This document shows positions 25,113-40,401 of a DNA stretch of 42,039 nucleotides, one piece after another (the first letter of the stretch is position 1; each line of letters starts with the position of its first letter). The DNA is taken from assembly GCA_016870325.1 (NCBI GenBank), contig VGBV01000007.1, forward strand, positions 1 through 42,039, in the 5' to 3' direction. The notes under the pieces were generated by a model. That model saw only the letters and a list, made by a program, of their open reading frames with translations, ran no database searches and was not told where the DNA came from. Position numbers and translations under genes: made by a program. The stretch is from Actinomycetota bacterium (GTDB taxonomy: Bacteria; Actinomycetota; Thermoleophilia; Solirubrobacterales; 70-9).

Positions 25113-26282
25113 GTGGCGAGGCTCGGCGTCTATACCGACTACACCTACTCGCTGCGCGATGGGCAGCCCCATGCCGAGCGCTCGTTCGCGCTGTTCGTGG
25201 CGGCGCTTGCCGAGCGGTTCGAGCGCACCGTCCTGATCGGGCGGCTCGATCCGGCCGGCGAGGCGCGCTATCCGCTCGGCGGGGTCGAGCTGTGCCCGCT
25301 GTCCAACTACCCGAGCCTCTCCCACACGCTGCCTGCCCTGCGCGGGATGCTGGGATCGCTGCGCCCTTTCTGGCGAGCGCTGGAGGGACTCGATCTGATC
25401 TGGATCCTGGGACCGCACCCCCTCGCCTTTCCGTTCGCGCTGCTCGCGAGGTTGCGCGGTCGTGCGGTCGTGCTCGGCGTGCGCCAGGACACCGTCGAGT
25501 ACGTTCGCAACCGCCACCCCGGGAGCCGCCGCAAGCAGGCCCTCGCGAAGCTGATGGACGCCGGCTTTCGCGCCCTCGGCCGTCGCTGGCCCGTGGTCGT
25601 CGTGGGTCCGGCGATCGCCGAGGCCTACCGGAGCAGCCCGAGGCTGCTCGAGATCTCGGTCTCATTGATTGCTCGTTCGCAGATCGCCGAAGCCGGTCAG
25701 AGCCGCGCCCGCGACTACTCCGGGGAGCTGCGGGCGCTCAGCGTCGGCCGCCTCGAGACGGAGAAGAACCCGCTCGCGCTAGCCGACGTGCTCGCCGACC
25801 TCAGGCGCCGGGACGAGCGCTGGCGCCTGGTGGTCTGCGGCGAAGGGGAGCTGAGGCCGGCCCTGGAGAGCCGCCTGCGGGAGTTGGGGGTGGACGCTTA
25901 CGCCGAGCTGCCGGGCTACCTGGGCCATGACTCGGCTTTGGGCGACCAGTACCGCAGGGCGCACGCGCTCGTGCTCGTCTCCTGGACGGAGGGTCTCCCC
26001 CAGGTCCTCTACGAGGCTTTCGCCGCAGGTCTGCCGGTCGCCGCGACCGACGTCGGCGGGATCGCCGCCGCTGCTGGAGACGCGGTGCTGCTCGTTCCCC
26101 CCGGAGACCCCGAGGCGATGGCGGCTTCGCTGGCTCGGATCGGGGAGGACGCCGCGCTGCGCGAGAGGCTGGTGCATCGCGGGCTGGCGCTGGTCGCCGA
26201 ACGCACGATCGAGTCCGAGACCGCCCGAGTCGCCGAGTTCCTCGAGGACGCGGAGCGACAGCCACCGCCCAGCACCAGATGA
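25113..26282 (+). CDS. glycosyltransferase family 4 protein
   Basis: GT-B fold retaining glycosyltransferase, 389 aa. The C-terminal half has the family pattern: LRALSVGRLETEKNPLAL, LVVCGEGELRPALE, HALVLVSWTEGLPQVLYEAFAAGLPV and TDVGGIAAAAGDAVLLVPPGD; the two glutamates of the EX7E motif lie in EGLPQVLYE. The N-terminal half has LIWILGPHPLAFPFALLARL and VLGVRQDTVEYVR. It would add a sugar to the lipid-linked intermediate in the cytoplasm. GTG 25113 follows TATCCT by 6 bases. The Wzz-kinase gene follows 42 bases later on the same strand. Donor and linkage are unknown. Confidence 0.9.
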   Translation: MARLGVYTDYTYSLRDGQPHAERSFALFVAALAERFERTVLIGRLDPAGEARYPLGGVELCPLSNYPSLSHTLPALRGMLGSLRPFWRALEGLDLIWILGPHPLAFPFALLARLRGRAVVLGVRQDTVEYVRNRHPGSRRKQALAKLMDAGFRALGRRWPVVVVGPAIAEAYRSSPRLLEISVSLIARSQIAEAGQSRARDYSGELRALSVGRLETEKNPLALADVLADLRRRDERWRLVVCGEGELRPALESRLRELGVDAYAELPGYLGHDSALGDQYRRAHALVLVSWTEGLPQVLYEAFAAGLPVAATDVGGIAAAAGDAVLLVPPGDPEAMAASLARIGEDAALRERLVHRGLALVAERTIESETARVAEFLEDAERQPPPSTR

Positions 26283-26324: not shown

Positions 26325-28004
26325 GTGCGCGACCATAACGAGCCAGTGTCCCGAGACCCCAACCATCGAGCCGACTGGCTCCAGCCGCCCGAAGAGGAGC
26401 TGGGGCTCAAGCGCTATGTGGAGACGATCAAGGAGCGCAAGCGGCTGGTGCTGCTCACGACGTTCCTCGCCACGGCGGCAGCAGTCGCCTACGTCCTGCT
26501 GGCACCCAAGACCTACGACGCGCAGGCGGACCTGCTGATCACCCCGGCCTCCAGCGAGACGCTGCCCGGTCTGCCGCTGATCCGAGAGTCCTCCCAGGAG
26601 ACCCGCGACGTCGAGACGGCGGCGCGGCTGGTGGTCAACACGGATGTCGCTGGGCGCGCCCAGAAGCGGCTGGACTTGAGCGGCGATCCCCAGGACCTGC
26701 TCGACGATGTCACGGCGGAGCCCGTCGCCCAGAGCAACATCGTCGCCGTCACCGCGACCGCGGACTCGCCCCAGGAGGCGCAGGATCTCGCCAACGCCTT
26801 CGCGGAGGCGACCGTCGTCGAGCAGACCGAGGCGCTGCGAGAGGAGGTCACCGCCCAGATCGACGCGCTCGAGAAGCAGCTCGCATCGAGCCCCAACCCG
26901 GCGCTCAGCGACAGGGTCGCGGAGCTGCAGGCGCTGGTCAGCGGGCCCAACCCGAACTTCAGGCTCGAGACCGGGGCCGCGCTGCCTCGCGAGCAGGCGA
27001 CCCCGCGACCCGCGCTGACGATCGTGGGAGGCTTCCTCGCCGGACTCGTGCTGGGGATCGTGGGGGCCTTCGCCTCCCAGGCGTTCGACCCTCGCGTACG
27101 GCGCGAGGAACAGCTGCGCCGCAGCTTCAGCCTTCCGATTCTGGCCCGAGTCCCGGAGGAGAGGTCCCGGCGGCCGGAGCCGCTCGGGCCCCGCCGTGTC
27201 TCGCCCGCGACCGCGGAGGCATTCCGCATTCTCCGCAGCTCGCTCGACAGGCCCGGTGAGCACGGCTCCGGCCGAGCGATCATGGTCACCGGCTCCTCCC
27301 CATCCGAAGGCAAGACGACAGCGGCCGCCAACCTGGCTTCCGCGCTGGCACTGGCGGGCTACAGGGTGATCCTGATCGAGGCCGACCTGCGCCGGCCGTC
27401 CCTGAGAAAGGCGCTGGAGACAGAGGAGACGAGCAGCGGGGTGGTCGAGGTGCTGATCGAGAACGCCTCGCTCGAGGATTCGCTGGTCCCGACGCCGACC
27501 TTCGGCGACAACCTCAGGGTCCTGTCGGCCGATTCCGCGGGAGGATGGATCGCAGACCTGTTCTCGATCCCGACGGCCTCCCAGATGCTCGACGATGCGC
27601 GGGCGATGGCCGACTTCGTGATCGTCGACTCGCCGCCGCTGATCGAAGTCGTGGACGCTTTCCCGCTGGCGCGAAGGTGCGACGACCTCGTCATCGTCGT
27701 CCGCCTTGGCCGGACCCGACTGGACCGGCTCTCACATCTGGCGGAGCTGCTGGCCGAGAACGACATCGTCCCGGCCGGATTCGCGGTCATCGGCACCAAG
27801 CCCCCGGGGAAGGCCGAGTACTCCTACTACCTGGAGACGCCCGACGCCGGCAGGAAGGGCAAGCGGCGCAAGCGCCTGGGCCGGAAGAAGCAGCTCGAGG
27901 CCCCCCAGCGCCCGACGCTCGACCGGCAGCAGGCGGAGGGCGCCCGCAGGAGCGCCAAGCGCCGCAGCTCCAAGCCACGGCAAGACACCGGCAAGAGTCG
28001 CTAG
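26325..28004 (+). CDS. Wzz-type chain-length regulator fused to BY-kinase (CpsD-like)
   Basis: 559 aa controlling polymer length and export. The N-terminal Wzz domain has two membrane helices (about 43-60 and 233-255) with a Gln/Ala-rich extracellular coiled coil between. The C-terminal kinase has Walker A GSSPSEGKTT (323-332), Walker A' VILIEADLRRP and Walker B ADFVIVDSPPL. Classical BY-kinases end in a tyrosine cluster. Here the few tyrosines (EYSYYLETP) are followed by about 50 residues rich in Lys/Arg (GKRRKRLGRKK, SAKRRSSKPRQ) with no tyrosine. GTG 26325 is used; GTG 26346 is an alternative. It lies between a glycosyltransferase and the second ligase-like gene. Confidence 0.9.
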   Translation: MRDHNEPVSRDPNHRADWLQPPEEELGLKRYVETIKERKRLVLLTTFLATAAAVAYVLLAPKTYDAQADLLITPASSETLPGLPLIRESSQETRDVETAARLVVNTDVAGRAQKRLDLSGDPQDLLDDVTAEPVAQSNIVAVTATADSPQEAQDLANAFAEATVVEQTEALREEVTAQIDALEKQLASSPNPALSDRVAELQALVSGPNPNFRLETGAALPREQATPRPALTIVGGFLAGLVLGIVGAFASQAFDPRVRREEQLRRSFSLPILARVPEERSRRPEPLGPRRVSPATAEAFRILRSSLDRPGEHGSGRAIMVTGSSPSEGKTTAAANLASALALAGYRVILIEADLRRPSLRKALETEETSSGVVEVLIENASLEDSLVPTPTFGDNLRVLSADSAGGWIADLFSIPTASQMLDDARAMADFVIVDSPPLIEVVDAFPLARRCDDLVIVVRLGRTRLDRLSHLAELLAENDIVPAGFAVIGTKPPGKAEYSYYLETPDAGRKGKRRKRLGRKKQLEAPQRPTLDRQQAEGARRSAKRRSSKPRQDTGKSR

Positions 28005-28015
28005 GGCCTCCGCCC

Positions 28016-29416
28016 TTGGCGCTCCGGATCGACTGGGCGAGGTGGGGATGGCCCGCCCTGTTGGGTGCGCTGGCCCTGCCGGTGGGGGTGCTGGCCGGCG
28101 TGCGGCCCGAGCTGACCCTGCTCGTCGCGCTGGGGCTTGCGTTCGTGCTGGTCGTCTTCGCCGACCTGACCACGGGGCTGGTCGCGTTCACGTTCCTCAC
28201 CTTCTTCGAGCTGCTTCCGAGCGCGGACAGCGCGGCCTTCGGATTCACCAAGCTCGCCGGCCTGCTGCTCGCCCTTTCCTGGCTGGCGCGACTGGCCGTC
28301 CACCCCGACGCCAAGTCCGACCTGCTGCGCGCGCACCCGATGATCGGCGGGCTGCTGGTGCTGCTGATCGCCTGGGCGGGGGTCAGCGTGATCTGGGCCG
28401 AGAACACGGCCGGCGCGATCGAGGCCACCTATCGCCTGGGCCTGAACGCCGTGCTCTTCCTGATCGTCTACACGGCGGTGCGGGTGCCGCGCGACGCCGT
28501 GCGTGTGCTGTGGGCGTTCGTGATCGGGGCGAGCGCGGCGACGGCCTACGGAATCGTGACCGGCGACGCCGCATCGCCATACGGCGAAGCGGCGCGGCTC
28601 TCGGGGACCGCCGAGAACGCCAACGAGCTGGCCTCGACGCTGGTTGCGAGCCTCGCGCTGGCGCTCGGGCTTGCGTTCCACTCGCGCGACTCGCCCGCGC
28701 AGCGAGCGGCGGCGCTGGCGATGGCGACGATCGCGCTCTACGGCGTCCTCCTCACCGTGTCGCGCTCGGGCCTGATCGCGCTGGGCGTCGCCGCCCTCGC
28801 CGCGATCGTCCTCTCGGGGCGTTGGCGGCCGCGGGTGGCGGTGCTGGCGATCGGAGTGGCGGTGAGCGCCCTCGCCTACTTTGCGCTGTTCGCTCCCGAC
28901 GCCGCCCGCGAGCGGGTCCGCGACTTCGAGGGCGGCACCGGCCGCGAGGACATCTGGCGGGTGGCGTGGCGGATGGTCGAGGACCAGCCGCTCCAGGGCG
29001 TCGGCGCCGGCAACTTCTCGGACTCCTCGATCCACTACCTGCTGGTGCCCGGCACGCTGCGCCGCTCGGACTTCATCGTCGACAGCCGGAAGAACGCCCA
29101 CAACGTCTACCTGGGGACCCTGGCGGAGCTGGGGATCGTCGGTCTGGCGCTGCTGGCGGCGCTGATCGTCGCGATCATCGCCTGCGCGCTCTGGGCGATC
29201 GACGGCTTCCGCCGGGTCGGGGACATCCGCATGGAGATGCTCGCGCGGGCCCAGCTCGTCGCCGTCTTCGGCCTGCTCGCCTCGCTGTTCTTCGCCTCGG
29301 ACGAGTACAAGAAGCAGCTCTGGCTGCTGCTGGCGCTGGCGCCGGCGCTGCTCGCGATCGCGCGGGCCGAGCTGGACCGGGCCCGTGAGCGCAGCGCTGA
29401 CGCCGAGCCCGGCTAG
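28016..29416 (+). CDS. second O-antigen ligase/polymerase-like protein
   Basis: About 466 aa with 11-12 membrane helices. The signature loop of the family is present (GTGREDIWRVAWRMVEDQPL, then GVGAGNFSDSS, then KNAHNVYLGTLAELGIVGLALL), and so is the conserved LTVSRSG segment. Unlike the ligase-like protein at 23089-25068 it lacks a TPR tail. A TTG at 28016, 12 bases after the stop of the Wzz-kinase gene, is the likely start because it lies just before the first membrane helix. It is co-directional with the GT and Wzz-kinase genes. Its stop overlaps that of the convergent glycosyltransferase by four bases (CTAG). One of the two family members is probably the polymerase and the other a ligase. 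Confidence 0.87.
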   Translation: MALRIDWARWGWPALLGALALPVGVLAGVRPELTLLVALGLAFVLVVFADLTTGLVAFTFLTFFELLPSADSAAFGFTKLAGLLLALSWLARLAVHPDAKSDLLRAHPMIGGLLVLLIAWAGVSVIWAENTAGAIEATYRLGLNAVLFLIVYTAVRVPRDAVRVLWAFVIGASAATAYGIVTGDAASPYGEAARLSGTAENANELASTLVASLALALGLAFHSRDSPAQRAAALAMATIALYGVLLTVSRSGLIALGVAALAAIVLSGRWRPRVAVLAIGVAVSALAYFALFAPDAARERVRDFEGGTGREDIWRVAWRMVEDQPLQGVGAGNFSDSSIHYLLVPGTLRRSDFIVDSRKNAHNVYLGTLAELGIVGLALLAALIVAIIACALWAIDGFRRVGDIRMEMLARAQLVAVFGLLASLFFASDEYKKQLWLLLALAPALLAIARAELDRARERSADAEPG

Positions 29417-30636
29417 CGCGCCACGGACTCCAGCACCGCCTCCATCGACCCGACCGCCCGCTCCCGCGAGTGTTGCTCGCCGAACTCGCGGGCCGCCGCC
29501 GCCAGGCGCTCCCGCAGCCGCTCGTCGTCGCGCAGCCGCCGCACAGCCGCGGCGATCGCGTTCCCGTCCTCGGGCGGGACGCAGATCGCGGCCCCGGCCC
29601 CCTCGGCCAGCTCGGCCGCCTCGCCCCTGGCGGCGACCACCAGAGGCCGCCCCACGCCCGCGTACTCGAACAGCTTCGAGGGCACGAAGCCCTCGAGCCC
29701 GGGCGTCGCCGCGAGCGGCACCAGCAGCGCGTCCGCGGCGCGCAGGATCCCCGCGGCCTGCGCGGACGGCACCGGGTCGAACAGCTCCACCGCCCCCGGC
29801 GGCAGCCCGGCCGCCAGGCGGCGCAGGCTCTCGCGGCGGGGGCCCTCGCCGACCAGGATCAGGCGAAAGCCCTCCCCCAGCTCGCGCGCGGCCTCGATCG
29901 CGCTCTCCAGCCCCTGCGCGATCCCGAGGTTGCCGGCGTAGGCCCAGGTGAAGCGCCCGGCCCGATCGCCCGCGCCCAGCGCCGCAAGCGCGCCGGGGTC
30001 GGGTGGCTCAGCGCCCGCGTCGAGGAACTCGGCCGCGGCGCCGTTTCGGATCACCGTCAGCTTCTCGTCCCCCCCGCGCTCCGCGACCACGCGCCGGAAG
30101 TGCTCGGTCGTGACGGTGATCGCGTCCGCGCTCGCGTACAGGCTCCGCTCCAAGCGCTCGACGAAGCGCAAGAGCCGCCCTGGGCCGATCTCGCCGACGA
30201 CCACCGCGACGTCGGGCCAGAGGTCGCGGACGTCGAGGACCCAGGGCGCGCGGTGCCGCCGCGCCAGCGCCCGCCCGACGCTGCCGACCGAGAGCGGCGG
30301 TGAGGACGCGAGGATCGCGTCCGGCCGCCGCCGGGCCGCCCCGGCCAGGGTGGCCATCGCTGCGTAGGAGGCGTAGTTGAGCAGGCGGGCCCGCGGGGAC
30401 TTCGACGGGGTGGCGCGGACCCAGACGTAGCTGACCTCGAACCCCTGCAGCGATCGCCTGCTCACAGGCCGGCCCCCGTAGCCGGGCTCGATCGCGCCGG
30501 CGGGGTGACTCGGGACCTCGCAGACGACCTCGACCTCGTGGCCGCGGGAGGCGAGCCCGGCGGCGAACGAGTGGAGCCTGTTGGCGCCCGCAGTGATCTC
30601 AGGCGGAAAGTACTGGCTTGCGATCAGGACCCTCAA
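29413..30636 (-). CDS. glycosyltransferase family 4 protein (WbuB-like)
   Basis: 407 aa. It has a typical start MRVLIASQYFPPEITAGANR, VLDVRDLWPDVAVVVG, AITVTTEHFRR, FTWAYAGNLGIAQGLESA, LILVGEGPRRESL and the C-terminal PSKLFEYAGVGRPLVVAARG. The arrangement is that of WbuB-type N-acetyl-L-fucosaminyl or related transferases, but donor specificity cannot be read from motifs. The TTG start overlaps the TGA stop of the aminotransferase gene (TTGA), which implies translational coupling. It ends the minus-strand sugar operon that begins with the epimerase at 33470. Confidence 0.9.
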   Translation of the reverse strand: MRVLIASQYFPPEITAGANRLHSFAAGLASRGHEVEVVCEVPSHPAGAIEPGYGGRPVSRRSLQGFEVSYVWVRATPSKSPRARLLNYASYAAMATLAGAARRRPDAILASSPPLSVGSVGRALARRHRAPWVLDVRDLWPDVAVVVGEIGPGRLLRFVERLERSLYASADAITVTTEHFRRVVAERGGDEKLTVIRNGAAAEFLDAGAEPPDPGALAALGAGDRAGRFTWAYAGNLGIAQGLESAIEAARELGEGFRLILVGEGPRRESLRRLAAGLPPGAVELFDPVPSAQAAGILRAADALLVPLAATPGLEGFVPSKLFEYAGVGRPLVVAARGEAAELAEGAGAAICVPPEDGNAIAAAVRRLRDDERLRERLAAAAREFGEQHSRERAVGSMEAVLESVAR

Positions 30637-31763: not shown

Positions 31764-32460
31764 TCTCGAACAGCTTCGGGTCCGCCGCGATCGCGGCGGT
31801 GGCGCGCTCGTGCTCGCCGACCGTCCCGATGTCGAACCAGACGCCGGGGGCGGCGTAGGAGGCGACGGCGCGATCACCGTCGATCATCTTCTGGACCACG
31901 TCGGGGAAGTCGAAGCGGCCGTCGGGTATCAGCTCCAGCACCGATGGGTCGTAGACGTAGACGCCCATGCTGACGTCGAAGTGCATCGTCGGCTTCTCGT
32001 CGTAGGAGACCACCCGCCCCTCCTCGGAGTGGATCACCCCGAGGTCGATGCCGATGTCGCGGCGGTGGGTCGCGATCGTCAGCTCCGCGTCGTGGCCGAG
32101 GTGGTAGCGCATCAGCTGTCCGTAGTCCATCGTCGTCAGGATGTCCCCGTTCATCGCCAGGAAGGGCTCGTCGAGGTCGTCGATGTGGCGCAGCGCGCCG
32201 GCGGTGCCGAGCGGCTCGTCCTCCCACCAGTAGCGCACCCTGAGCGACTCGGGCAGCTCGACGCTCTCGAGGTAGGCCTTGATCAGCCCGCCGAGGTGCC
32301 CGACCGAGAGGTCGATGCGGGTGAAGCCGAAGCTCGCGAGCTGGCGCAGGATCAGCTCCAGGATCGGGCGCTCGGCCACCGGCACCAGGGGCTTCGGAAG
32401 CACCGTCGTGTAGGGGCGGAGCCGGGTGCCCTTGCCGCCCGCGAGGATCACTGCCCTCAT
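31756..32460 (-). CDS. sugar-1-phosphate nucleotidyltransferase
   Basis: 234-residue NTP transferase. The signature LAGGKGTRLRP (residues 6-16) with Lys23 in LPKPLVPV, the metal/nucleotide Asp in MNGDILTT, and GVWFDIGTVGEHERA near the end are present. It activates a sugar phosphate as NDP-sugar for the locus. The short length fits GlmU/RmlA-like or D-glycero-manno-heptose and mannose guanylyltransferase-like enzymes without a C-terminal beta-helix. ATG 32460 overlaps the TGA of the epimerase gene (ATGA). Substrate unknown. Confidence 0.9.
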   Translation of the reverse strand: MRAVILAGGKGTRLRPYTTVLPKPLVPVAERPILELILRQLASFGFTRIDLSVGHLGGLIKAYLESVELPESLRVRYWWEDEPLGTAGALRHIDDLDEPFLAMNGDILTTMDYGQLMRYHLGHDAELTIATHRRDIGIDLGVIHSEEGRVVSYDEKPTMHFDVSMGVYVYDPSVLELIPDGRFDFPDVVQKMIDGDRAVASYAAPGVWFDIGTVGEHERATAAIAADPKLFENA

Positions 32461-33470
32461 CGGCCGCTCAGCTCGTAGTTGAGGTAGAGGAGCGGATCGG
32501 CCTCGACGGAGTCGAAGACGCCGCTGCGGATCGCCTCGACCAGGCGCTCGACCGAGCCGGGGACCGTGTGGCGGGGCGAGAAGCCGAGCCGCTCGGAGAT
32601 CTTCTCGAAGGAGACGCGGTAGTTGCGCGCGTCGGCGCCGCCCTCGGTGAAGACGACCTCGCCCTCGCCGTCGAGCGCAGCGAGCGCGGTCTCGACCACC
32701 ATGCGCTTGGTGTAGTTGCCCCCCGCGCCACCGACGTTGAAGACCTCGCCGGAGACCAGCTCGGGGGCGGACTCCAGGACGAGCGCGATCGCGGCCGAGG
32801 TGTCGGCGATGTGGCAATAGGGACGCCAGGTGTCCGCGTCGTAGACCTCCAGCGCGCGGCCGAGCGCGAGCTCGCGGGTGAACTCCGAGATCGTCAGGTC
32901 GAAGCGCATCCGGGGCGAGATCCCGTAGGCCGTGGCCACGCGAAGCACGGTCGCCTCGAAGCTCGCATGCCGCGCGCGCTCGAGCAGCTCGCCCTCCATC
33001 TGCACCTTCGTCTCGGCGTAGAGCGAGAGCGGGTGCAGCTCGTCGGTCTCGGTGGCGGGCTCGTCGGTGCGCAGGCCGTAGTTGCTGCAGGTCGAGGCGA
33101 ACACGAAGCGCTCGACCCCGGCCTCGGCCGACGCGTCGATCAGGTTGCGGGCGCCGCCGACGTTGGTCTGCTCGGCCAGCTCGGGGCTGCCCTTGCAGAC
33201 CGGGTCACCGACCAGCGCCGCCAGCAGCACGACCTCGCCGACGCCCTCGACCGCGGCGCGCACCTGATCGGCCGAGCGCACGTCGCCGCGCGCGAACTCG
33301 AAGCCGGGGTGCTCCGCGACCGCGGCCAACGAGCCGCCGTTGCCGTAGAGCAGGGAGTCCAGGACGCGTACGCGATGCCCGGCGGCGAGCAGGTCGCGCG
33401 TGAGCACGGAGCCGATGTAGCCGGCTCCGCCCACGACCAGGATCTGCCGCTCAAGATCTGCCGCGGACAT
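32457..33470 (-). CDS. NAD-dependent epimerase/dehydratase (extended SDR)
   Basis: 337 aa with the Rossmann motif GGAGYIG at 14-20, STCSNYG (126-132) and the catalytic YxxxK at Tyr151/Lys155 (LYAETKVQ). PYCHIADTSAAI and VFNVGGAGGNYTKR follow in the substrate half. It acts on a nucleotide sugar, as a 4-epimerase, dehydratase or reductase. The CSNYG in place of the more usual SS.YG resembles hexose-derivative epimerases of antibiotic and surface-sugar loci. First gene of a four-gene overlapping operon. TAGATT (33477-33482) lies 6 bases before the ATG, fitting a leaderless start. Confidence 0.9.
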   Translation of the reverse strand: MSAADLERQILVVGGAGYIGSVLTRDLLAAGHRVRVLDSLLYGNGGSLAAVAEHPGFEFARGDVRSADQVRAAVEGVGEVVLLAALVGDPVCKGSPELAEQTNVGGARNLIDASAEAGVERFVFASTCSNYGLRTDEPATETDELHPLSLYAETKVQMEGELLERARHASFEATVLRVATAYGISPRMRFDLTISEFTRELALGRALEVYDADTWRPYCHIADTSAAIALVLESAPELVSGEVFNVGGAGGNYTKRMVVETALAALDGEGEVVFTEGGADARNYRVSFEKISERLGFSPRHTVPGSVERLVEAIRSGVFDSVEADPLLYLNYELSGR

Positions 33471-33541: not shown

Positions 33542-34345
33542 TCAGATCACGATCAGGGCCCCGGCCTGCTCGGCCACGGGCGGCAGGCCGCCGGCAAGCG
33601 AGAGACGGGCGGCGTCCGCGAGCCGGCCCAGCCTCGTGGAGCGCACCATGCGGATCGCCGGCGAGGTCTTCAGCCAGAAGCGCCAGCGCCGGTCCGCCGG
33701 GTAGACGCCCACCCGGGGCCAGCAGAGGGGCTGCTCGGGCCCGCAGCGCATCGACGCCGCGGCGGCGTACCCGGCTTGGCCCGCGAGCCGCTGCACCCGC
33801 TCGTCCTCGTCGCCGTAGGGGAAGGCGAGCGAGCGGCGGTCGCCGCCGAGCTCCTCCCGCAGACGATCGCGCGAGCCGGCCAGCTCGGCGAGCAGCGCAT
33901 CGTCTTGGAGCCTGCTCAGGCGGGGGTGCGAGCGCGTATGCGAGCCCACCTCCCAGCCGGCGTCCCGCAGGCCGCGGAGCTGGTCCCAGTCGAGGCAGCG
34001 CAGCTCCTCGCGGAAGGGCCCTTCTGACCATTCGTCGATGCCGGGCCAGCGCATCGGCCCGGGCGCGCCGACGAAATCGGTGGGGACGAAGATCGTGCCG
34101 GGCAGGTCCAGTTCGCGCATGATCGGCACCGCGTGCTCGAGCACCGACGCGTAGCCGTCGTCGAAGCTGACGACCAGCGAGCGGCGCGGCGCGGCGCCGC
34201 TGACCACCTGGGAGAAGGTCGCGCCCGTGTAGCCTCGCTCGATGAGCAACTCGAGCTGCTCGCGGAACCTCCCCGGAGAGACCGATAGCACGGAGGGCCA
34301 ACGGGGGCTGACCGCGTGGTAGGAGAGGACGAGCGATGGCGACAT
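33542..34345 (-). CDS. polysaccharide deacetylase (NodB/CE4)
   Basis: 267 aa without signal peptide. CE4 motifs: SFDDGYASVLEHA (Asp62/Asp63), GSHTRSHPRLS (zinc His136/His140), and AFPYGDEDERV with the following arginine-side motif. It should remove N- or O-acetyl groups from a sugar. The absence of an export signal suggests either a cytoplasmic lipid-linked or NDP-sugar substrate, or non-classical export. GAAGG 7 bases before the ATG is a clear ribosome-binding site. It is co-directional with the glycosyltransferase at 34397 and the epimerase operon. Confidence 0.9.
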   Translation of the reverse strand: MSPSLVLSYHAVSPRWPSVLSVSPGRFREQLELLIERGYTGATFSQVVSGAAPRRSLVVSFDDGYASVLEHAVPIMRELDLPGTIFVPTDFVGAPGPMRWPGIDEWSEGPFREELRCLDWDQLRGLRDAGWEVGSHTRSHPRLSRLQDDALLAELAGSRDRLREELGGDRRSLAFPYGDEDERVQRLAGQAGYAAAASMRCGPEQPLCWPRVGVYPADRRWRFWLKTSPAIRMVRSTRLGRLADAARLSLAGGLPPVAEQAGALIVI

Positions 34346-34396: not shown

Positions 34397-35533
34397 CTAG
34401 GCGTGGGCGGCGAGCACGCGCGCGTAACGGTCGACCATCTTCTCGGCCCAGGGGCGCAGGTCGAAGCGTGCGGCGACCGCCTCGCGGGCCTCGGCGGCCT
34501 CGCGCTCGGCGCGCTCGCGCGGGCGGCCGAGCAGCTCTCGCGCCGCCGCGGCCATCGCCTCCGGCGTGCGCTCCACGACCCGGCAGCTCGCGAGGCCGTC
34601 GCAGATGTCCTGATGGCCCGGCAGGTCGGTCGCGACCACGGGCAGGCCCGAGAGGATCGCCTCGATCACCGCGAGGGGCTGGCCCTCGACGCGGCTGGAG
34701 GCGACGAACAGGTCGGCCGCCGCGTAGAGGTCACGGATATCGGCGGCGCCGTCGAGGATCCGCAGCCGAGGCCCGAGGCCGAGCGCCTCCGCGCCGCGGC
34801 GGGCGGGCTCTCCGCCCCGGACCGTGACGCCCACGTAGCTGCGCTCCGGGCCCCGGTCGAGCAGCCTGCGCAGGGTCGCCAGGAACAGGTCGCCGTCCTT
34901 CAGCCGCCAGTCCCAGGCGAGGTGCAGAAGGACCCGGTCCTCGGGGTCCAGGCCGAGCTCCGAGCGCGCCGGTGCTCGCAGCGCCGGGCCGACCAGCGGG
35001 AAGGAGTCGACCTCGATGCCGCCGCCGACGACCTCGACCCGGCCGCGCGGTGCGCCGGCCAGGATCGCGCCGCGCGCCGGATCGGGCCCGGCCGCGACGA
35101 TCTCGTCCACCGAACGGCCGAGCAGGCCGTACTTGAGCAGGTTTCTCGCGGCGGCCCGCGGCCGCCACGACAGCGGGGTGTGGATGTGCCAGATCACCCC
35201 GGTCACGGGCCGCTTCCTCGCGAGCGCCAGGGCGGGCAGGTCGAAGCGGGTGAAGTGCGTGTGCAGCAGCGTCGGCTCCGAGCCGGGGCCGAAGCGCTCC
35301 CCGACCCAGTCAGTGAGCGTGCGCCGTCCCGCGTCGGGGGCCTCGAGCACGGCCGCGCCCCCCTGTGCGCGCAGATCCCTGTACCAGTCGAATGACTCGA
35401 CCTCGGTCGTGAACGCCATCTCCACCCGCCACCCGCGGGCGTCCGCCGCGTCGCGCAGGGAGCGCAGCATCGGCACGAACGAGCCCTCGAAGGGCCCGTT
35501 GTAGCCGGCCAGGAGCCCGAGCCTGGGACTCAC
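34397..35533 (-). CDS. glycosyltransferase family 4 protein
   Basis: 378 aa GT-B transferase. LLHTHFTRFDLPALALARKR, GVIWHIHTPLSWRPRAAARN, VEVVGGGIEVDSFPL, DLYAAADLFVASSRVEGQPLAVIEAILSGLPVVATDLPGH and the acidic pair of the EX7E motif (EGQPLAVIE) are visible. The N-terminus MSPRLGLLAGYNGPFEGSFVP begins directly at the first beta strand. GTG 35533 lies only a base after the stop of the C5-epimerase-like gene, so the two are surely in one transcript and coupled. This suggests that it builds or extends the uronic-acid polymer acted on by that epimerase. Donor unknown. Confidence 0.9.
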   Translation of the reverse strand: MSPRLGLLAGYNGPFEGSFVPMLRSLRDAADARGWRVEMAFTTEVESFDWYRDLRAQGGAAVLEAPDAGRRTLTDWVGERFGPGSEPTLLHTHFTRFDLPALALARKRPVTGVIWHIHTPLSWRPRAAARNLLKYGLLGRSVDEIVAAGPDPARGAILAGAPRGRVEVVGGGIEVDSFPLVGPALRAPARSELGLDPEDRVLLHLAWDWRLKDGDLFLATLRRLLDRGPERSYVGVTVRGGEPARRGAEALGLGPRLRILDGAADIRDLYAAADLFVASSRVEGQPLAVIEAILSGLPVVATDLPGHQDICDGLASCRVVERTPEAMAAAARELLGRPRERAEREAAEAREAVAARFDLRPWAEKMVDRYARVLAAHA

Positions 35534-35534
35534 T

Positions 35535-36494
35535 TCAGGCGGTCGCCTCGCCCCGGGTCCAGGGCATGCGCCGGCCGAGCACCCGGTTGCGCGGCACGAC
35601 CAGGCGGAAGGCCAGCTTGTGCGCGAATGAGCCGGCGCGATTGGAGCGGCGGGCCATGTAGCCGCGGAAGCGCTCGGCCGCTGCGGCCAGCTCGGGCCTC
35701 GGGCCGATCGCCTGGTTCGCCTCGAGCTGGCGGATGTGGAGCAGGTGGTATGCCGAGCTCGCCACGTTGCGCAGGGGCAGCGCCGGGTAGAGGTCGTACA
35801 GGGACCAGCGGCCCGTGTCCCAGCGCCCGATTCCGCGGGCGAGGGCGTCCAGGCCCCGCTCCCAGTCCGCGGCGGCGCTCTGGTCGCCCAGGCCGACGGC
35901 GACGTCGCGCGCGCCCCAGAGGGCGAAGATGCCTCCGTTCAGCACGTAGGAGGCGGGCTCGGTCGGGTACTCCTCGAAGAAGGGGCCGCCCTCGAGCTCG
36001 ACGCGGACGCCGCCCGCCGCCGTCGGCGCCGCGAAGGGACCGAGCGCGCGCAGCGCCGCCTCGGCGTAGGCCTCCTCCCCGGTCTCGGCGTGCAGCCGCG
36101 TCAGCAGGCTGGCCCCCTGGCCCTGCGCCATCGACGAGAGCCACGGCGGGTCGAGCGGGAAGGTGTGCGGCATCGGGAAGCGGTGTACCCAGGCGCCCCC
36201 CGGCTCCTGGTCGGAGACCAGATGGTCGGCGCCCGCCCGCGCCCCGGCCAGCCAACTCTCGCCCTCGCCCCAGAGGTAGCGCTCGAAGCAGCCGAGGCCC
36301 CACTGGGTCAGTTCCACGTGCAGCAGCGTCTCCCGCGGCCCCATCCAGGCGGGGGGCCAGTCCGGGCTCTCGGCCTTGAAGCCGAAGTCGATCGGGTAGC
36401 CGCGCACGCCCTCGGGATCCATGTGCGCGCCGACCCGCGGCGAGAACACTCGCGCGCTGCTGAAGAACCCGGTGCTCTTGTGGTCGGAAGCCAT
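35535..36494 (-). CDS. D-glucuronyl C5-epimerase-like protein
   Basis: 319 aa. The sequence matches the C-terminal (alpha/alpha-barrel) domain of heparan glucuronyl C5-epimerases: ETLLHVELTQWGLGCFERYL, GGAWVHRFPMPHTFPLDPPW, LSSMAQGQGASLLTRLHAET, GGPFFEEYPTEPASYVLNGG, FALWGARDV, and RWDTGRWSLYDLYP with SSAYHLLHIRQLE. In animals this domain turns GlcA into IdoA within heparosan; bacterial homologues occur in capsule loci. The N-terminal beta-domain of the animal enzyme is absent, as usual in bacteria. No signal peptide. Upstream is a divergent gene with a 57-base gap. Activity on heparosan-like or alginate-like chains is an inference. Confidence 0.87.
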   Translation of the reverse strand: MASDHKSTGFFSSARVFSPRVGAHMDPEGVRGYPIDFGFKAESPDWPPAWMGPRETLLHVELTQWGLGCFERYLWGEGESWLAGARAGADHLVSDQEPGGAWVHRFPMPHTFPLDPPWLSSMAQGQGASLLTRLHAETGEEAYAEAALRALGPFAAPTAAGGVRVELEGGPFFEEYPTEPASYVLNGGIFALWGARDVAVGLGDQSAAADWERGLDALARGIGRWDTGRWSLYDLYPALPLRNVASSAYHLLHIRQLEANQAIGPRPELAAAAERFRGYMARRSNRAGSFAHKLAFRLVVPRNRVLGRRMPWTRGEATA

Positions 36495-36551
36495 GTTGCT
36501 CGGCACCCTGAGTTGCGGTCGAGGTCGGGCGCGCGGCCTAGGGTATGGCAG

Positions 36552-37907
36552 ATGAGCGACGGCACGATCTTCGCACCGGAAGGCTCCGGGATCCGCCCGT
36601 TCGCCGACACGATCGGCTGGCTCTGGAGGGTCCCGGTCACCGATTCGCCCTCTGGCCGCTCGGTCGGGATCGGCACGATCGAGGACGGCGTCGAGCTCGA
36701 GGCCCTGGTGGCGTCCCGGCAGCTCGCGGGGGCCGCGGTGTTCGGCTCGCGGCCCGGCCCCGACCAGGGGCGCGTGCCCGGGCGCCAGCGCCTGGCCGGA
36801 ACGGCGAGGTTCGGCCCCGGCCTGGCGACCCAGGGCGACTTCACCGTGCTGCACGGACCCGGTCGGGCCGTCGCCGAATCCTCCTTCGGCGCCCACGCGC
36901 TGCGCGACGGCTCCTGGCTCACGCTCGGCTTCGACCCCGTCGCTTCGTGGGGCACCCTGCAGCACTTCTGGGCGCTGCGCCCCCTGGCCGACTTCCTCGC
37001 CGAGCTGCTGCAGCGGCCGATGGCGATGCTGCCGCCGCTGGGAATGGTCCGCTACGACGACGTCCCGGGCACAGCCGAGCAGCAGCTCAAGGGGGAGACC
37101 AAGAGCGACGCCCACGTGCGCAGGCGCCTGCGTCGCATCCTCGGCGCCTACCGCCGAGCTGGGGCCGTGATCAACGTCGCGGTCGCCTGCCGGGCCCTGG
37201 ACGGCGATCGCGAGGTGCCGCTCGAGAGCATCTGGCCCGGATCGCTGGAGATGCTGCGCGAGGGCATCGCCGAGGGATACGTGGAGCAGGTCTGCCACGG
37301 CTACCTCCACCTCGACCGCGACCGCAGCGGGCCCGACGAGATCGAGCCGCGCGAGTTCGCCCGCCTCGACAGGCCCGAGGCCCACCGAAGGATCGAGGCG
37401 GCGCTGGAATGGGGGACGTCGATCCTGGGCGCCAGGCCGCGCACCTTCATCGCCCCCAACTGGGGCTACAGCTCGGGCTCGCTGGAGGCGCTCGGCGAGA
37501 TCGGGCTGCCGGCCTGGCTGCCGTTCCGCTTTGGGCCGCTGGTCGACGGGCCGAACGCCCGGGAGACGCTCGTCTCCACCGTCAACGGCATCCACGACCT
37601 CGACTACGCCCCTCTGGCCGCGCTCGCGGCCGCCGGCCTCCCCCCCTACGTGACCATCCACGGCGGCCTCATGGATGCCCGCTTCGACGGGCTCCGCGGC
37701 CTCCGCCACGCGGGCGCCCTGGCGCGGCTCGCCCTGCGCCGCGACCTGGTCAGGCTTCCGGGCGTGCCCGGGATCCGCTGGGTCGGGTCAGGAGAGCTGA
37801 TGGAGCGGCTGCGCGCGCACGACCGCGTCGAGGTCGCGGGGGCCGAGATCCGCTCCCCGGACGGCGTCGAGGTGAGTGCGCACGGGGCCCCGGTCGCGGC
37901 GCCCTGA
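36552..37907 (+). CDS. divergent CE4/DUF2334-like polysaccharide deacetylase-fold protein
   Basis: 451 aa with no close family recognised by eye. The middle has CE4-like metal motifs in the right order: VRYDDVPG (Asp169/Asp170), QVCHGYLHLD (His249 and His253, an HxxxH) and TFIAPNWGYSSGSLEAL, comparable with motif 3 of the family. The N-terminal 150 residues form a separate domain (GVELEALVASRQLAGAAVFG, FTVLHGPGRAVAESSFG, ALRDGSWLTLGFDPVASWG) of unknown fold. No signal peptide. ATG 36552 is preceded by TAGGGT at 7 bases. It overlaps the next gene by one base (TGATG). A deacetylase or carbohydrate-binding role in the same polymer pathway is inferred. Confidence 0.75.
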   Translation: MSDGTIFAPEGSGIRPFADTIGWLWRVPVTDSPSGRSVGIGTIEDGVELEALVASRQLAGAAVFGSRPGPDQGRVPGRQRLAGTARFGPGLATQGDFTVLHGPGRAVAESSFGAHALRDGSWLTLGFDPVASWGTLQHFWALRPLADFLAELLQRPMAMLPPLGMVRYDDVPGTAEQQLKGETKSDAHVRRRLRRILGAYRRAGAVINVAVACRALDGDREVPLESIWPGSLEMLREGIAEGYVEQVCHGYLHLDRDRSGPDEIEPREFARLDRPEAHRRIEAALEWGTSILGARPRTFIAPNWGYSSGSLEALGEIGLPAWLPFRFGPLVDGPNARETLVSTVNGIHDLDYAPLAALAAAGLPPYVTIHGGLMDARFDGLRGLRHAGALARLALRRDLVRLPGVPGIRWVGSGELMERLRAHDRVEVAGAEIRSPDGVEVSAHGAPVAAP

Positions 37908-38854
37908 TGGATGCGGGCGCGAACTCGAGCGCGGATCAACGCACGCCGGGGCCTAAACGGCGGCGGCGGACGAGGGCCTGGGGCCTGCTCGCCATCGCGC
38001 CGGCGGCGGTCGCCGTCGCCGCGGCGCTCGGAGCCGGCGGCGATTCTGACGAGGCCCTGCCCGACTCCTCGCAGCGCCTGCTCGCCTCCGACACCGCCGG
38101 CATGGCCGACCCCTTGCCTTTCTGGGGAGCGCTCGACTGCGCCGAGCGCTCTCGCCACCGCCGCATCGCCACGGGAGGCGACCCCGCCCCGGCGGGAGAC
38201 GGATCGCCGCAGGGCGATGCGGCCTTCCGGCGGCTGACGGCGGTCGACGGTGACGACCTCTGGGGCGAGCGCTGCGAGCTGGGCCTGAACAACGCCGGGG
38301 GGCCGGTCAGCTTCTACCGCGAGGGCGAGCGCCTCGTGACCTACGCCAGCTTCCGGCTGCCCCACGACTTCCCGCTGGGGGCGAAGAACTGGCAGGGGGT
38401 GCTGCAGATGAAGCAGGCCCAGCCGGCCGACAACGGCGGCGGCACCCCGGTGATCTCGCTCGGGGCCTATCAGGGCCAGTGGCTGCTGTTCGCGAGCGAC
38501 CCCGGCCCGACGATCGTGGACCGCGTGGTCTGGCGGGCGCCGGCCGAGAAGGGGGCCTGGACGCGCTTCCGGATCGAGGCGCTCTACTCACAGGACCCCG
38601 GGCAGGGCTGGGTCGAGGTCCGGGTCGATCTCGACGGCGACGGTGACAGCGACGACGAGGGCGAGGGCGGGCCGCGGATCGCGGTGGCCACGCTCAAGCG
38701 CGAGACGGCCGGGGACCCGGGCGACGGCCTCGAGCGGGGCGACCCGGTCCCCTCCCACCTGCGCGTCGGGATCTACCACGACGAGCGCATCGCCTGCCCG
38801 GCGCCGGCGGGCTGCTCGGTCGACGTCGACAACGTGCAGGTGCTGCGGCCGTGA
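37907..38854 (+). CDS. heparin-lyase-I-like polysaccharide lyase-fold protein, membrane-anchored
   Basis: 315 aa. A basic N-terminus (KRRRRTR) and one membrane helix (WGLLAIAPAAVAVAAALG) place the rest outside. The jelly-roll part resembles the heparin lyase I family (polysaccharide lyase, PL13/PL20-like): VSFYREGERLVTYASFRLP, AKNWQGVLQMKQAQP, TPVISLGAYQGQWLLF, AEKGAWTRFRIEALYSQDPG, a calcium-type acidic loop DLDGDGDSDDEGEGG, and SHLRVGIYHDE. Such enzymes cut acidic polysaccharides by beta-elimination. Catalytic residues could not be assigned safely. It lies between the CE4-like and flippase genes with start-stop overlaps on both sides. It could trim or only bind the polymer. Confidence 0.75.
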   Translation: MDAGANSSADQRTPGPKRRRRTRAWGLLAIAPAAVAVAAALGAGGDSDEALPDSSQRLLASDTAGMADPLPFWGALDCAERSRHRRIATGGDPAPAGDGSPQGDAAFRRLTAVDGDDLWGERCELGLNNAGGPVSFYREGERLVTYASFRLPHDFPLGAKNWQGVLQMKQAQPADNGGGTPVISLGAYQGQWLLFASDPGPTIVDRVVWRAPAEKGAWTRFRIEALYSQDPGQGWVEVRVDLDGDGDSDDEGEGGPRIAVATLKRETAGDPGDGLERGDPVPSHLRVGIYHDERIACPAPAGCSVDVDNVQVLRP

Positions 38855-40401
38855 GCGGCGGCGGCCCCCACCCCGCCGCGCCGGGATCAGGGCCCCCGCC
38901 CGCGGGCCCCGAGGACCCGGCCGACAGCATCGAGCGCAACGCCGCCTTCGGCCTCGCCGTGAAGCTCGCCGGGGCGCTGTTCACGGGCGCGCTCACGATC
39001 TTCCTCGTGCGCGAGTTGGAGCCCGACGGCTACGGGGTGTTCGCGCTCGCGACCAGCATCGGCTCGCTGGTGGTGCTGTTCTCGGACTTCGGCATCTCCC
39101 AGTCCGCGGCGCGCTACATCGCCGAGCGACGAGGCCGCCACCAGGAGGTCGGCAACGTGCTCGGCGACGCTCTCAGCCTCAAGCTCGCCGCCTCGCTGCT
39201 CGTATCGGCGCTGCTCGCGCTGCTCGCGGTTCCGATCGCGGACGCCTACGACAACCCGGACCTCGTCTGGCCGCTTCGACTGGTCTCCCTCGCGGTGCTC
39301 GCCCAAAGCGTGATGGCGCTGTTCGCCGGCTCCTTCAATGCGCTGGGGCGAAACTCGCTGCACTTCAGACTGGCCCTCTCGGAGAGCGCGGTCGAGGTCG
39401 GTGCCAGCGTCGCCCTCGTCCTGCTCGGGGCGGGGGTCACCGGCGCAGTCGGCGGACGCGCGATCGGCTATGCGTTCGGCGCCCTGCTCGGCGTCGTCCT
39501 GGTGGCGCGCCTGATCAGGCCCGGCAGGATGCACGTCGGGCTCCGGGCGCGCTGGGGCTACCGCCCGATCGCCGCATATGCCGGCGCGTTGCTGATCGTC
39601 GAGGGCGCCTTTGCGCTCTACACCGAGATCGACACACTGATGATCGGCGCGATCCTCGGCACCACAGCCGCCGGCCTCTTCGCGGCGCCACTGCAGCTTC
39701 TGATCTTCACCCAGTATCCGGCGCTGGCGCTGGCGGCCGGGATCGCGCCGCGGCTCGCGCGTCACCCGGATCACCCGCCCAACGCCGATGCTCTCCAGGG
39801 CGGGCTGCGGCTGCTGATCCTGATCCAGTTCGCGCTCGTCGTGCCGATCGTCGTCTGGGCCGAGCCGCTCGTCGACCTCGTCTTCGGCGCCGACTACGGA
39901 GCCTCGGTCGAGCCGCTCCGCTTCCTCGCGCCCTACGTGCTGATCGGCGGCATCACCCCGCTGCTGGCCCTGAGCGTCAACTATCTCGGCGAGGCCCGGC
40001 GCCGGATACCCCTCGCGATCGCGACCGTCCTCATCAACGCGGCGCTCGACCTCTGGCTGATCAACGAGCTCGGGATCAAGGGGGCCTCGATAGCCACGAG
40101 CATCGCGGTCGCGTTCTACGCGTTCGGCCACCTCATGATCTGCGTACGGGTGCTCGATCTGCGGCTGGCGCCGCTGGCACTGAGCTCCACCCGCTCCGCC
40201 CTCGCGGCGACCGCGATGGGAGCCGTCCTGTTCGCCTTCGGGACGGGCACGCTCAGTGTGCTCGAGATGATCGCCGGCGGCCTACTTGCCCTGACGGCCT
40301 ACGCGCTGGTCTTGGTCACGACTCGGGAGTTGACCGGCGAGGACGCCCGTCAGCTGCGCGAGCGCGCGGCAGCCGCGCTCGGCCGCGGGAGCGGAACCTG
40401 A
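38851..40401 (+). CDS. Wzx-type polysaccharide flippase (MATE/MOP superfamily)
   Basis: 516 aa with about 14 membrane helices, the usual number for Wzx/RfbX flippases. The N-terminal cytoplasmic stretch is Pro/Gly-rich (HPAAPGSGPPPAGPEDPADS). Family-like features are the first-helix motif IERNAAFGLAVKLAGALF, TIFLVRELEPDGYGVFALA, LFSDFGISQSAARYIAERRG and the paired FGADYGASVEPLRFLAPYVL. It should flip lipid-linked repeat units across the membrane. GTG 38851 overlaps the stop of the lyase-like gene (GTGA). Same operon as the two genes before it. Substrate specificity is unknown. Confidence 0.92.
   Translation: MSGGGPHPAAPGSGPPPAGPEDPADSIERNAAFGLAVKLAGALFTGALTIFLVRELEPDGYGVFALATSIGSLVVLFSDFGISQSAARYIAERRGRHQEVGNVLGDALSLKLAASLLVSALLALLAVPIADAYDNPDLVWPLRLVSLAVLAQSVMALFAGSFNALGRNSLHFRLALSESAVEVGASVALVLLGAGVTGAVGGRAIGYAFGALLGVVLVARLIRPGRMHVGLRARWGYRPIAAYAGALLIVEGAFALYTEIDTLMIGAILGTTAAGLFAAPLQLLIFTQYPALALAAGIAPRLARHPDHPPNADALQGGLRLLILIQFALVVPIVVWAEPLVDLVFGADYGASVEPLRFLAPYVLIGGITPLLALSVNYLGEARRRIPLAIATVLINAALDLWLINELGIKGASIATSIAVAFYAFGHLMICVRVLDLRLAPLALSSTRSALAATAMGAVLFAFGTGTLSVLEMIAGGLLALTAYALVLVTTRELTGEDARQLRERAAAALGRGSGT

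What the first reader, a model, noticed from the sequence alone, without database searches (positions are those of the whole stretch)
35535..38854. Possible glycosaminoglycan-like polymer pathway in a Gram-positive actinobacterium
A glucuronyl C5-epimerase domain, a heparin-lyase-I-like exported protein, two CE4-type deacetylases (33542 and 36552), a coupled glycosyltransferase, a flippase and asnB lie together. In animals deacetylation and C5-epimerisation of heparosan are the steps that make heparan. The gene set could make an epimerised, partly deacetylated uronic-acid polymer.
Basis: inference. Interest (0 to 1): 0.75.

Follow-up and report, generated by a model that had tools for sequence, protein, structure and literature searches.

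The report
Bacterial heparan-style epimerase–deacetylase sugar locus
A soil-type actinobacterium carries, inside an ordinary polysaccharide-export locus, a sugar-acid epimerase of the animal heparan-sulfate type that is evolutionarily tied (and in one relative physically fused) to a sugar N-deacetylase, so the cell may make a polymer decorated the way heparan is; whether it truly resembles heparan is not shown.

Summary
The core observation holds, with corrections. The epimerase is 35535–36494(−), a PF06662 protein (E 2e-38) most similar among solved structures to vertebrate glucuronyl C5-epimerase (E 1e-28). All five published catalytic residues are kept, and its confident model matches only that enzyme closely. 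The protein at 33542 is a true CE4 deacetylase; the one at 36552 is only DUF2334; the exported "heparin-lyase-like" protein has the lyase domain but lacks the motif histidine. All sit in a Wzx/Wzy exopolysaccharide locus.

New evidence from relatives (Solirubrobacterales and kin): the CE4 orthologue occurs in 12/12 family genomes with the epimerase versus 4/38 without. It lies within 1.6 kb in 10/12 and is fused to the epimerase in one. Sulfotransferases sit beside the pair in several relatives. The genome has UDP-glucose dehydrogenase, APS kinase and sulfotransferases, but elsewhere.

Neither enzyme has a signal peptide, so the likeliest mechanism is cytoplasmic editing of lipid-linked repeat units: GlcNAc to GlcN and a uronic acid to its C5 epimer, then Wzx/Wzy export. 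A strictly alternating glycosaminoglycan is not shown. GLCE homologues are common in this class (135/249 genomes) and one bacterial enzyme is characterised. New variant of a known kind.

The parts
35535..36494 (-). GLCE-family glucuronyl C5-epimerase, 319 aa, single alpha-barrel domain, no signal peptide
   Evidence: PF06662 E 2.2e-38; zebrafish GLCE 4pw2 E 1.3e-28, human 6hzz E 1.5e-25; five catalytic residues kept; AF2 pLDDT 89, pTM 0.88, Foldseek top 8 all GLCE, E about 1e-13, rmsd about 2 A
33542..34345 (-). CE4 polysaccharide N-deacetylase, 267 aa, cytoplasmic; D63/H136/H140 metal triad present
   Evidence: PF01522 E 6e-24; nearest solved structures are GlcNAc-polymer de-N-acetylases of IcaB/PgaB type; orthologue adjacent or fused to the epimerase in relatives
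34397..35533 (-). GT4 glycosyltransferase between epimerase and deacetylase, start 1 bp from epimerase stop
   Evidence: PF13692 E 1e-19
36552..37907 (+). DUF2334 protein (NodB-like fold suspected), divergent from epimerase
   Evidence: PF10096 31 bits; orthologue about 5 kb from the epimerase in G200
37907..38854 (+). Exported or membrane-anchored Polysacc_lyase-domain protein (PF14099); Q-x-H motif reads QMK
   Evidence: 41 bits; N-terminal hydrophobic segment; weak model, best folds glucuronan lyase PL20, heparinase I, alginate lyase; motif
38851..40401 (+). Wzx-type flippase
   Evidence: PF01943/PF13440
40698..42039 (+). AsnB-like amidotransferase, truncated at contig end
   Evidence: PF00733 profile positions 2-177
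32457..33470 (-). NAD-dependent sugar epimerase/dehydratase (SDR)
   Evidence: PF01370
31756..32460 (-). Sugar-1-phosphate nucleotidyltransferase
   Evidence: PF00483
30633..31763 (-). DegT/DnrJ sugar aminotransferase
   Evidence: PF01041 E 2e-101
29413..30636 (-). GT4 glycosyltransferase
   Evidence: PF13579
28016..29416 (+). Wzy / O-antigen ligase-like polymerase
   Evidence: NCBIfam TIGR03097/TIGR00947 below cut-off
26325..28004 (+). Wzz/BY-kinase-like chain-length protein
   Evidence: read from its translation; conserved beside the epimerase in relatives
25113..26282 (+). Glycosyltransferase, GT4-like
   Evidence: translation; homologues 52-59% identical in relatives' epimerase loci
23089..25068 (-). 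Second Wzy/O-antigen ligase-like membrane protein
   Evidence: translation; homologues in L038/L039
21020..22555 (-). Undecaprenyl-phosphate sugar phosphotransferase (chain initiation)
   Evidence: TIGR03025 290 bits, just under cut-off

Best explanation
The region is a Wzx/Wzy-dependent exopolysaccharide locus of a Solirubrobacterales-type actinobacterium. It contains a coupled modification module: a single-domain, cytoplasmic GLCE-family C5-epimerase and a CE4 N-deacetylase. Proposed mechanism: (1) an undecaprenyl-phosphate sugar transferase and GT4 enzymes build a lipid-linked repeat unit containing a hexuronic acid and an N-acetylhexosamine; (2) the CE4 enzyme removes the N-acetyl group; (3) the epimerase inverts C5 of the neighbouring uronic acid (D-GlcA to L-IdoA if GlcA is the substrate) by Tyr/Glu proton transfer; (4) Wzx flips and Wzy polymerises the unit; (5) an exported lyase-fold protein binds or trims the product. 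In some relatives sulfotransferases add sulfate. Shown by sequence: family identity, catalytic residues, predicted fold, genomic coupling. Inferred: localisation, substrates, order of steps, product.
For: Epimerase identity. Catalytic residues E499/Y500/N510/Y560/Y578 (listed in PMC13308652) are all kept here and in the closest relatives aligned. Family-wide: CE4 orthologue (E<1e-30) in 12/12 epimerase-positive versus 4/38 negative genomes (Fisher p 1.5e-8; genomes are not phylogenetically independent, but a same-genus contrast holds: G000 has both, G133 neither). Gap under 1.6 kb in 10/12. GLCE-CE4 fusion in G200 with both Pfam domains in one 612-aa frame. Neither protein has an N-terminal hydrophobic segment, unlike most of the exported PF06662 group. 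UDP-glucose dehydrogenase (C70), APS kinase and sulfotransferases in the genome. Wzx, Wzy, BY-kinase and UndP-transferase in the locus. Lyase-domain genes near the epimerase in G270 and on the same contig in G065.
Against: No biochemistry. The residue at human Arg563 is Tyr here, and the dimerisation and beta-sandwich domains of vertebrate GLCE are absent, so substrate range may differ. In four relatives the nucleotide-sugar dehydrogenase beside the epimerase is WbpA/WecC-like, with a UDP-GlcNAc 2-epimerase-like gene nearby in one, so the uronic acid could be a HexNAcA. The own genome also has a wbp-like set on C47. Sulfotransferases are not in the window.
Confidence: 0.6

Rival explanations
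1. The enzymes make a conventional heteropolysaccharide whose uronic acid is not GlcA (for example ManNAcA or a 2,3-diamino-mannuronic acid). The GLCE-like enzyme then epimerises a HexNAcA, or acts only on one residue of a larger, branched repeat unit.
For: WbpA/WecC-type dehydrogenase near the epimerase in the G271-G274 type loci; wbp-like set on C47 of this genome; R563 replaced; DegT, NTase and SDR genes in the locus imply further amino sugars; AsnB-like amidotransferases in such loci can amidate uronic acids (WbpS/WbtH type; recalled knowledge, not tested).
Against: A true UDP-glucose dehydrogenase is also present; GlcA-type UGD genes lie near GLCE homologues in Bifidobacterium, Paenibacillaceae and Phocaeicola; the catalytic residues match the GlcA enzyme exactly.
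Confidence: 0.25
2. True glycosaminoglycan: an alternating GlcA/GlcNAc polymer, partly deacetylated, epimerised and sulfated, as in heparan sulfate.
For: Deacetylase-epimerase coupling including a fusion; sulfotransferases beside the pair in G029, G180, G198 and G263; lyase-fold proteins whose best structural hits are uronic-acid lyases.
Against: No heparosan synthase seen; GT4-type transferases plus extra amino-sugar genes argue for a longer repeat; Wzx/Wzy route; no sulfotransferase in this locus.
Confidence: 0.12
3. The gene neighbourhood is a loose exopolysaccharide island. Epimerase and deacetylase are both common in such islands and need not act on the same molecule.
For: PF06662 is in 135/249 genomes of the class; sulfotransferases are numerous in some of these genomes; G065 has the two genes 40 kb apart.
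Against: Conserved adjacency in 10/12, a gene fusion, and co-absence in congeners (G133, G248) are not expected for unrelated genes.
Confidence: 0.15

Closest known systems
Vertebrate heparan sulfate D-glucuronyl C5-epimerase (GLCE; PDB 6HZZ, 4PW2)
   Same: Catalytic alpha-helical domain, 31-35% identity over about 210 residues, all five catalytic residues
   Different: Only the C-terminal domain, no signal peptide or membrane anchor, Arg563 not kept, sits in a Wzx/Wzy locus
Bermanella marisrubri RED65_08024 C5-epimerase (Raedts 2013; described in PMC13308652 and PMC4432689)
   Same: Bacterial GLCE homologue; the only characterised bacterial one according to PMC13308652
   Different: Its sequence could not be compared here; its native polymer is unknown (PMC4432689); a coupled deacetylase is not mentioned in the texts read
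Halobacterium Agl32 (PMC13308652)
   Same: Acts on a lipid-linked glycan before export, single helical domain: the same topology as proposed here
   Different: Lacks the GLCE catalytic residues; N-glycosylation pathway
NDST / heparan sulfate biosynthesis
   Same: Deacetylation of GlcNAc paired with C5-epimerisation of uronic acid, sulfotransferases in relatives
   Different: CE4 rather than NDST; fused to the epimerase (in one relative) rather than to a sulfotransferase; no EXT-type polymerase seen
HfsH / IcaB / PgaB polysaccharide deacetylases
   Same: CE4 family and motifs; sub-threshold NCBIfam matches to PgaB, IcaB and HfsH
   Different: Partnered with a C5-epimerase

Membership tests
GLCE (PF06662) C5-epimerase | Profile match to C5-epim_C | tested here: met
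   E 2.2e-38, 132 bits against cut-off 23.3
GLCE (PF06662) C5-epimerase | Catalytic E499, Y500, N510, Y560, Y578 | tested here: met
   E175, Y176, N186, Y233, Y249 (residue list)
GLCE (PF06662) C5-epimerase | Alpha-helical catalytic fold | tested here: met
   Foldseek top 8 hits all GLCE, rmsd about 2 A
GLCE (PF06662) C5-epimerase | N-terminal beta-hairpin and beta-sandwich domains | tested here: not met
   319-aa protein aligns only to chain residues 355-578 of 4pw2; model mostly helical
GLCE (PF06662) C5-epimerase | GlcA to IdoA activity | not testable with these tools
   needs an enzyme assay
CE4 N-deacetylase | Polysacc_deac_1 profile and D-H-H metal motifs (33542 protein) | tested here: met
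   (FDD, HTRSH)
CE4 N-deacetylase | Profile match of the second claimed CE4, at 36552 | tested here: not met
   only DUF2334 (PF10096), 31 bits
Heparin lyase I (PL13) / PF14099 | Profile match | tested here: met
   41 bits, cut-off 29.9
Heparin lyase I (PL13) / PF14099 | Q-x-H catalytic motif (assigned from memory of heparinase I) | tested here: not met
   QMK in window and orthologues, QWH/QFH in most strong members
Heparin lyase I (PL13) / PF14099 | Fold | tested here: inconclusive
   model pLDDT 56; best hits PL20, PL13, PL7
Heparan-sulfate-like pathway | UDP-GlcA supply | tested here: met
   UGD on C70, coding sequence split by an intein-like insert
Heparan-sulfate-like pathway | Sulfotransferases with the modification genes | tested here: not met
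   none in the window, which ends at a contig end; present beside the pair in four relatives
Heparan-sulfate-like pathway | Heparosan-type polymerase (EXT, KfiA/KfiC) | tested here: inconclusive
   GTs of the locus examined are GT4-type; whole genome not searched for them
Heparan-sulfate-like pathway | Modification of the finished polymer outside the cytosol | tested here: not met
   no signal peptide or TM in epimerase or CE4 by hydropathy

The most novel reading that the evidence does not exclude
Solirubrobacterales bacteria independently make a heparan-sulfate-like exopolysaccharide (free-amine glucosamine, L-iduronic acid, sulfated in some species) by editing lipid-linked repeat units in the cytoplasm, with deacetylase and epimerase working as one (sometimes fused) enzyme.
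Probability: 0.2. Interest if true: 0.85.

Novelty: new variant of a known kind. Interest (0 to 1): 0.55.

Why it matters
Only one bacterial glucuronyl C5-epimerase is characterised according to PMC13308652, its natural polymer is unknown, and a 2015 review states that sulfation had not been observed in prokaryotic glycosaminoglycans (PMC4432689). A conserved epimerase–deacetylase module, fused in one genome and flanked by sulfotransferases in others, makes the question 'do bacteria build heparan-like chains?' directly testable. It also offers soluble, single-domain enzymes for chemoenzymatic heparin work, where animal NDST is a bottleneck (PMC13353177).

Tried and rejected
Joining contig C7 to C70 through asnB: the two partial genes are complementary on the profile (2-177 and 202-286), but the C-terminal piece looks like another subfamily and the ends do not visibly overlap, so I do not claim UGD is linked to the locus. 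Heparin-lyase identity by sequence: no relevant PDB match for the protein or its profile. Structure of the lyase-like protein: model too weak to rely on. CE4 linkage outside Actinomycetota: not seen in the other phyla examined. Literature: no paper found on a deacetylase–epimerase module in actinobacteria; the library lacks Raedts 2011 and 2013. Considered that PF06662 here was a divergent exported protein like many in the class: rejected, since the window's protein groups with the non-secreted exopolysaccharide clade.
Full report
Observation. The window is the whole of contig C7 of its genome (2.5 Mb, 247 contigs, 93% complete) and has no tRNA genes. Gene calling with a codon model and translation give, around the finding: CE4 33542-34345(−), GT4 34397-35533(−), epimerase 35535-36494(−), then divergently DUF2334 36552-37907(+), lyase-domain protein 37907-38854(+), flippase 38851-40401(+), asnB 40698(+) to the contig end. 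The long ORF 35535-37709 given by mechanical listing is the epimerase plus non-coding antisense. Several junctions overlap or nearly touch, as in operons.

Identity. Pfam gives PF06662 at 2.2e-38 for the epimerase, PF01522 at 6e-24 for the CE4, only DUF2334 (31 bits) for the second 'deacetylase' and PF14099 (41 bits) for the exported protein. NCBIfam has no model for the epimerase. Against solved structures the epimerase finds only vertebrate GLCE (E 1e-28 to 5e-25). The catalytic residues listed for human GLCE in PMC13308652 are all conserved in the window protein and its closest relatives, while exported PF06662 paralogues of the class often lose E499 or Y500. Human Arg563 is Tyr here and Phe or Tyr in the closest relatives. 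An AlphaFold2 model from ten aligned sequences has pLDDT 89 and pTM 0.88. Its eight best PDB matches are all GLCE (E about 1e-13, rmsd about 2 A over 210 columns), the next being GH76 barrels at about 5e-4. The match covers only the helical catalytic domain.

Localisation. Hydropathy finds no N-terminal hydrophobic segment in the epimerase or CE4, in this genome or in the relatives of that clade, whereas most of the other, about 500-aa PF06662 group have one. So both modification enzymes are most likely cytoplasmic, and the substrate is most simply a lipid-linked repeat unit. This is inference from sequence.

Relatives. PF06662 is found in 135 of 249 genomes of the class, so the domain itself is not rare. 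A tree puts the window protein in a well-supported clade of ten Actinomycetota sequences, mostly Solirubrobacterales/Thermoleophilaceae or unplaced actinobacterial metagenome-assembled genomes by their titles. In the family of the window genome (50 genomes) the CE4 orthologue is found at E<1e-30 in all 12 epimerase-positive genomes and 4 of 38 negative ones (Fisher 1.5e-8; genomes are related, so this p is optimistic). The same-genus genome G133 lacks both. In 10 of 12 the two genes lie within 1.6 kb. In G200 (isolate MohnsGC08_bin146, L009/L093) they are one 612-aa protein with both Pfam domains and no stop. In G029, G180, G198 and G270 the genes overlap by a few bases in the order epimerase, CE4, flippase. 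The locus in G029, G180, G198 and G065 lies next to argG and a sortase-like gene, as in the window.

Sulfation and lyases. In G029, G180 and G198 two to four proteins with sulfotransferase domains lie within 10 kb. In G263 one is just upstream of the epimerase and one abuts the CE4. G065 has a sulfotransferase about 2-3 kb from its CE4 and another beside three lyase-domain genes about 12 kb from the epimerase. G270 has three lyase-domain genes in the epimerase locus. In the window genome sulfotransferase genes exist only on other contigs and an APS kinase is present. Background matters: some of these genomes hold 17 or more sulfotransferase matches, so the association is suggestive, not exclusive.

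Substrate. A UDP-glucose dehydrogenase with the EPGL motif is encoded on C70, interrupted by an intein-like insert at GGS|CFPKD, so UDP-GlcA supply is likely. However, the genome also has a WbpA-like dehydrogenase with wbp-type neighbours on C47, and four relatives place a WbpA/WecC-type dehydrogenase near the epimerase. In other phyla the dehydrogenase near GLCE homologues is GlcA-type in some and HexNAcA-type or unresolved in others. So GlcA to IdoA is the leading but unproven reaction.

The exported protein. Its domain belongs to PF14099; a low-confidence model (pLDDT 56) still finds glucuronan lyase, heparinase I and alginate lyases first. All are uronic-acid lyases, but the Q-x-H motif of strong members is Q-M-K in the window and its orthologues, while the C-terminal Tyr is kept. 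I therefore call it lyase-fold, activity doubtful.

Conclusion. The stronger claim of a glycosaminoglycan-like polymer is not established. What the relatives add, adjacency and one fusion, is the part I consider new; I found no paper describing it, in a library that lacks the two key Raedts papers.

Noticed in passing
L051:4023-6794(-) (own genome, contig C70): UDP-glucose dehydrogenase gene with an intein-like insertion of several hundred residues exactly before the catalytic Cys (GGS|CFPKD).
   Followed up: partly
L009:580-2418(-) / L093: Natural fusion of a GLCE-type C5-epimerase and a CE4 deacetylase in one 612-aa protein.
   Followed up: yes
L013, L015, L018-L020, L022, L028-L033: A second PF06662 group of about 400-600-aa, mostly exported proteins outside polysaccharide loci (in L045 and L046 close to an acyl-CoA dehydrogenase-like gene); several replace E499 by Gln, Ile or Met. 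Function unknown.
   Followed up: partly
L174 (G093): CE4, sulfotransferases and a lyase-domain protein linked in a polysaccharide locus of a genome that lacks the epimerase.
   Followed up: no
L050 (own genome, contig C47): wbpA/B/D/E/I-like gene set suggesting UDP-2,3-diacetamido-mannuronic acid synthesis.
   Followed up: no
window 42039 and L051:10099-10647: Two incomplete asnB pieces at contig ends, complementary on the profile but probably different subfamilies.
   Followed up: partly
L034, L036-L039, L092, L094-L098 near the epimerase: Right-handed beta-helix exported proteins recur next to the epimerase in relatives (none seen in the window); possible polymer-binding or lyase-like partner.
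   Followed up: no
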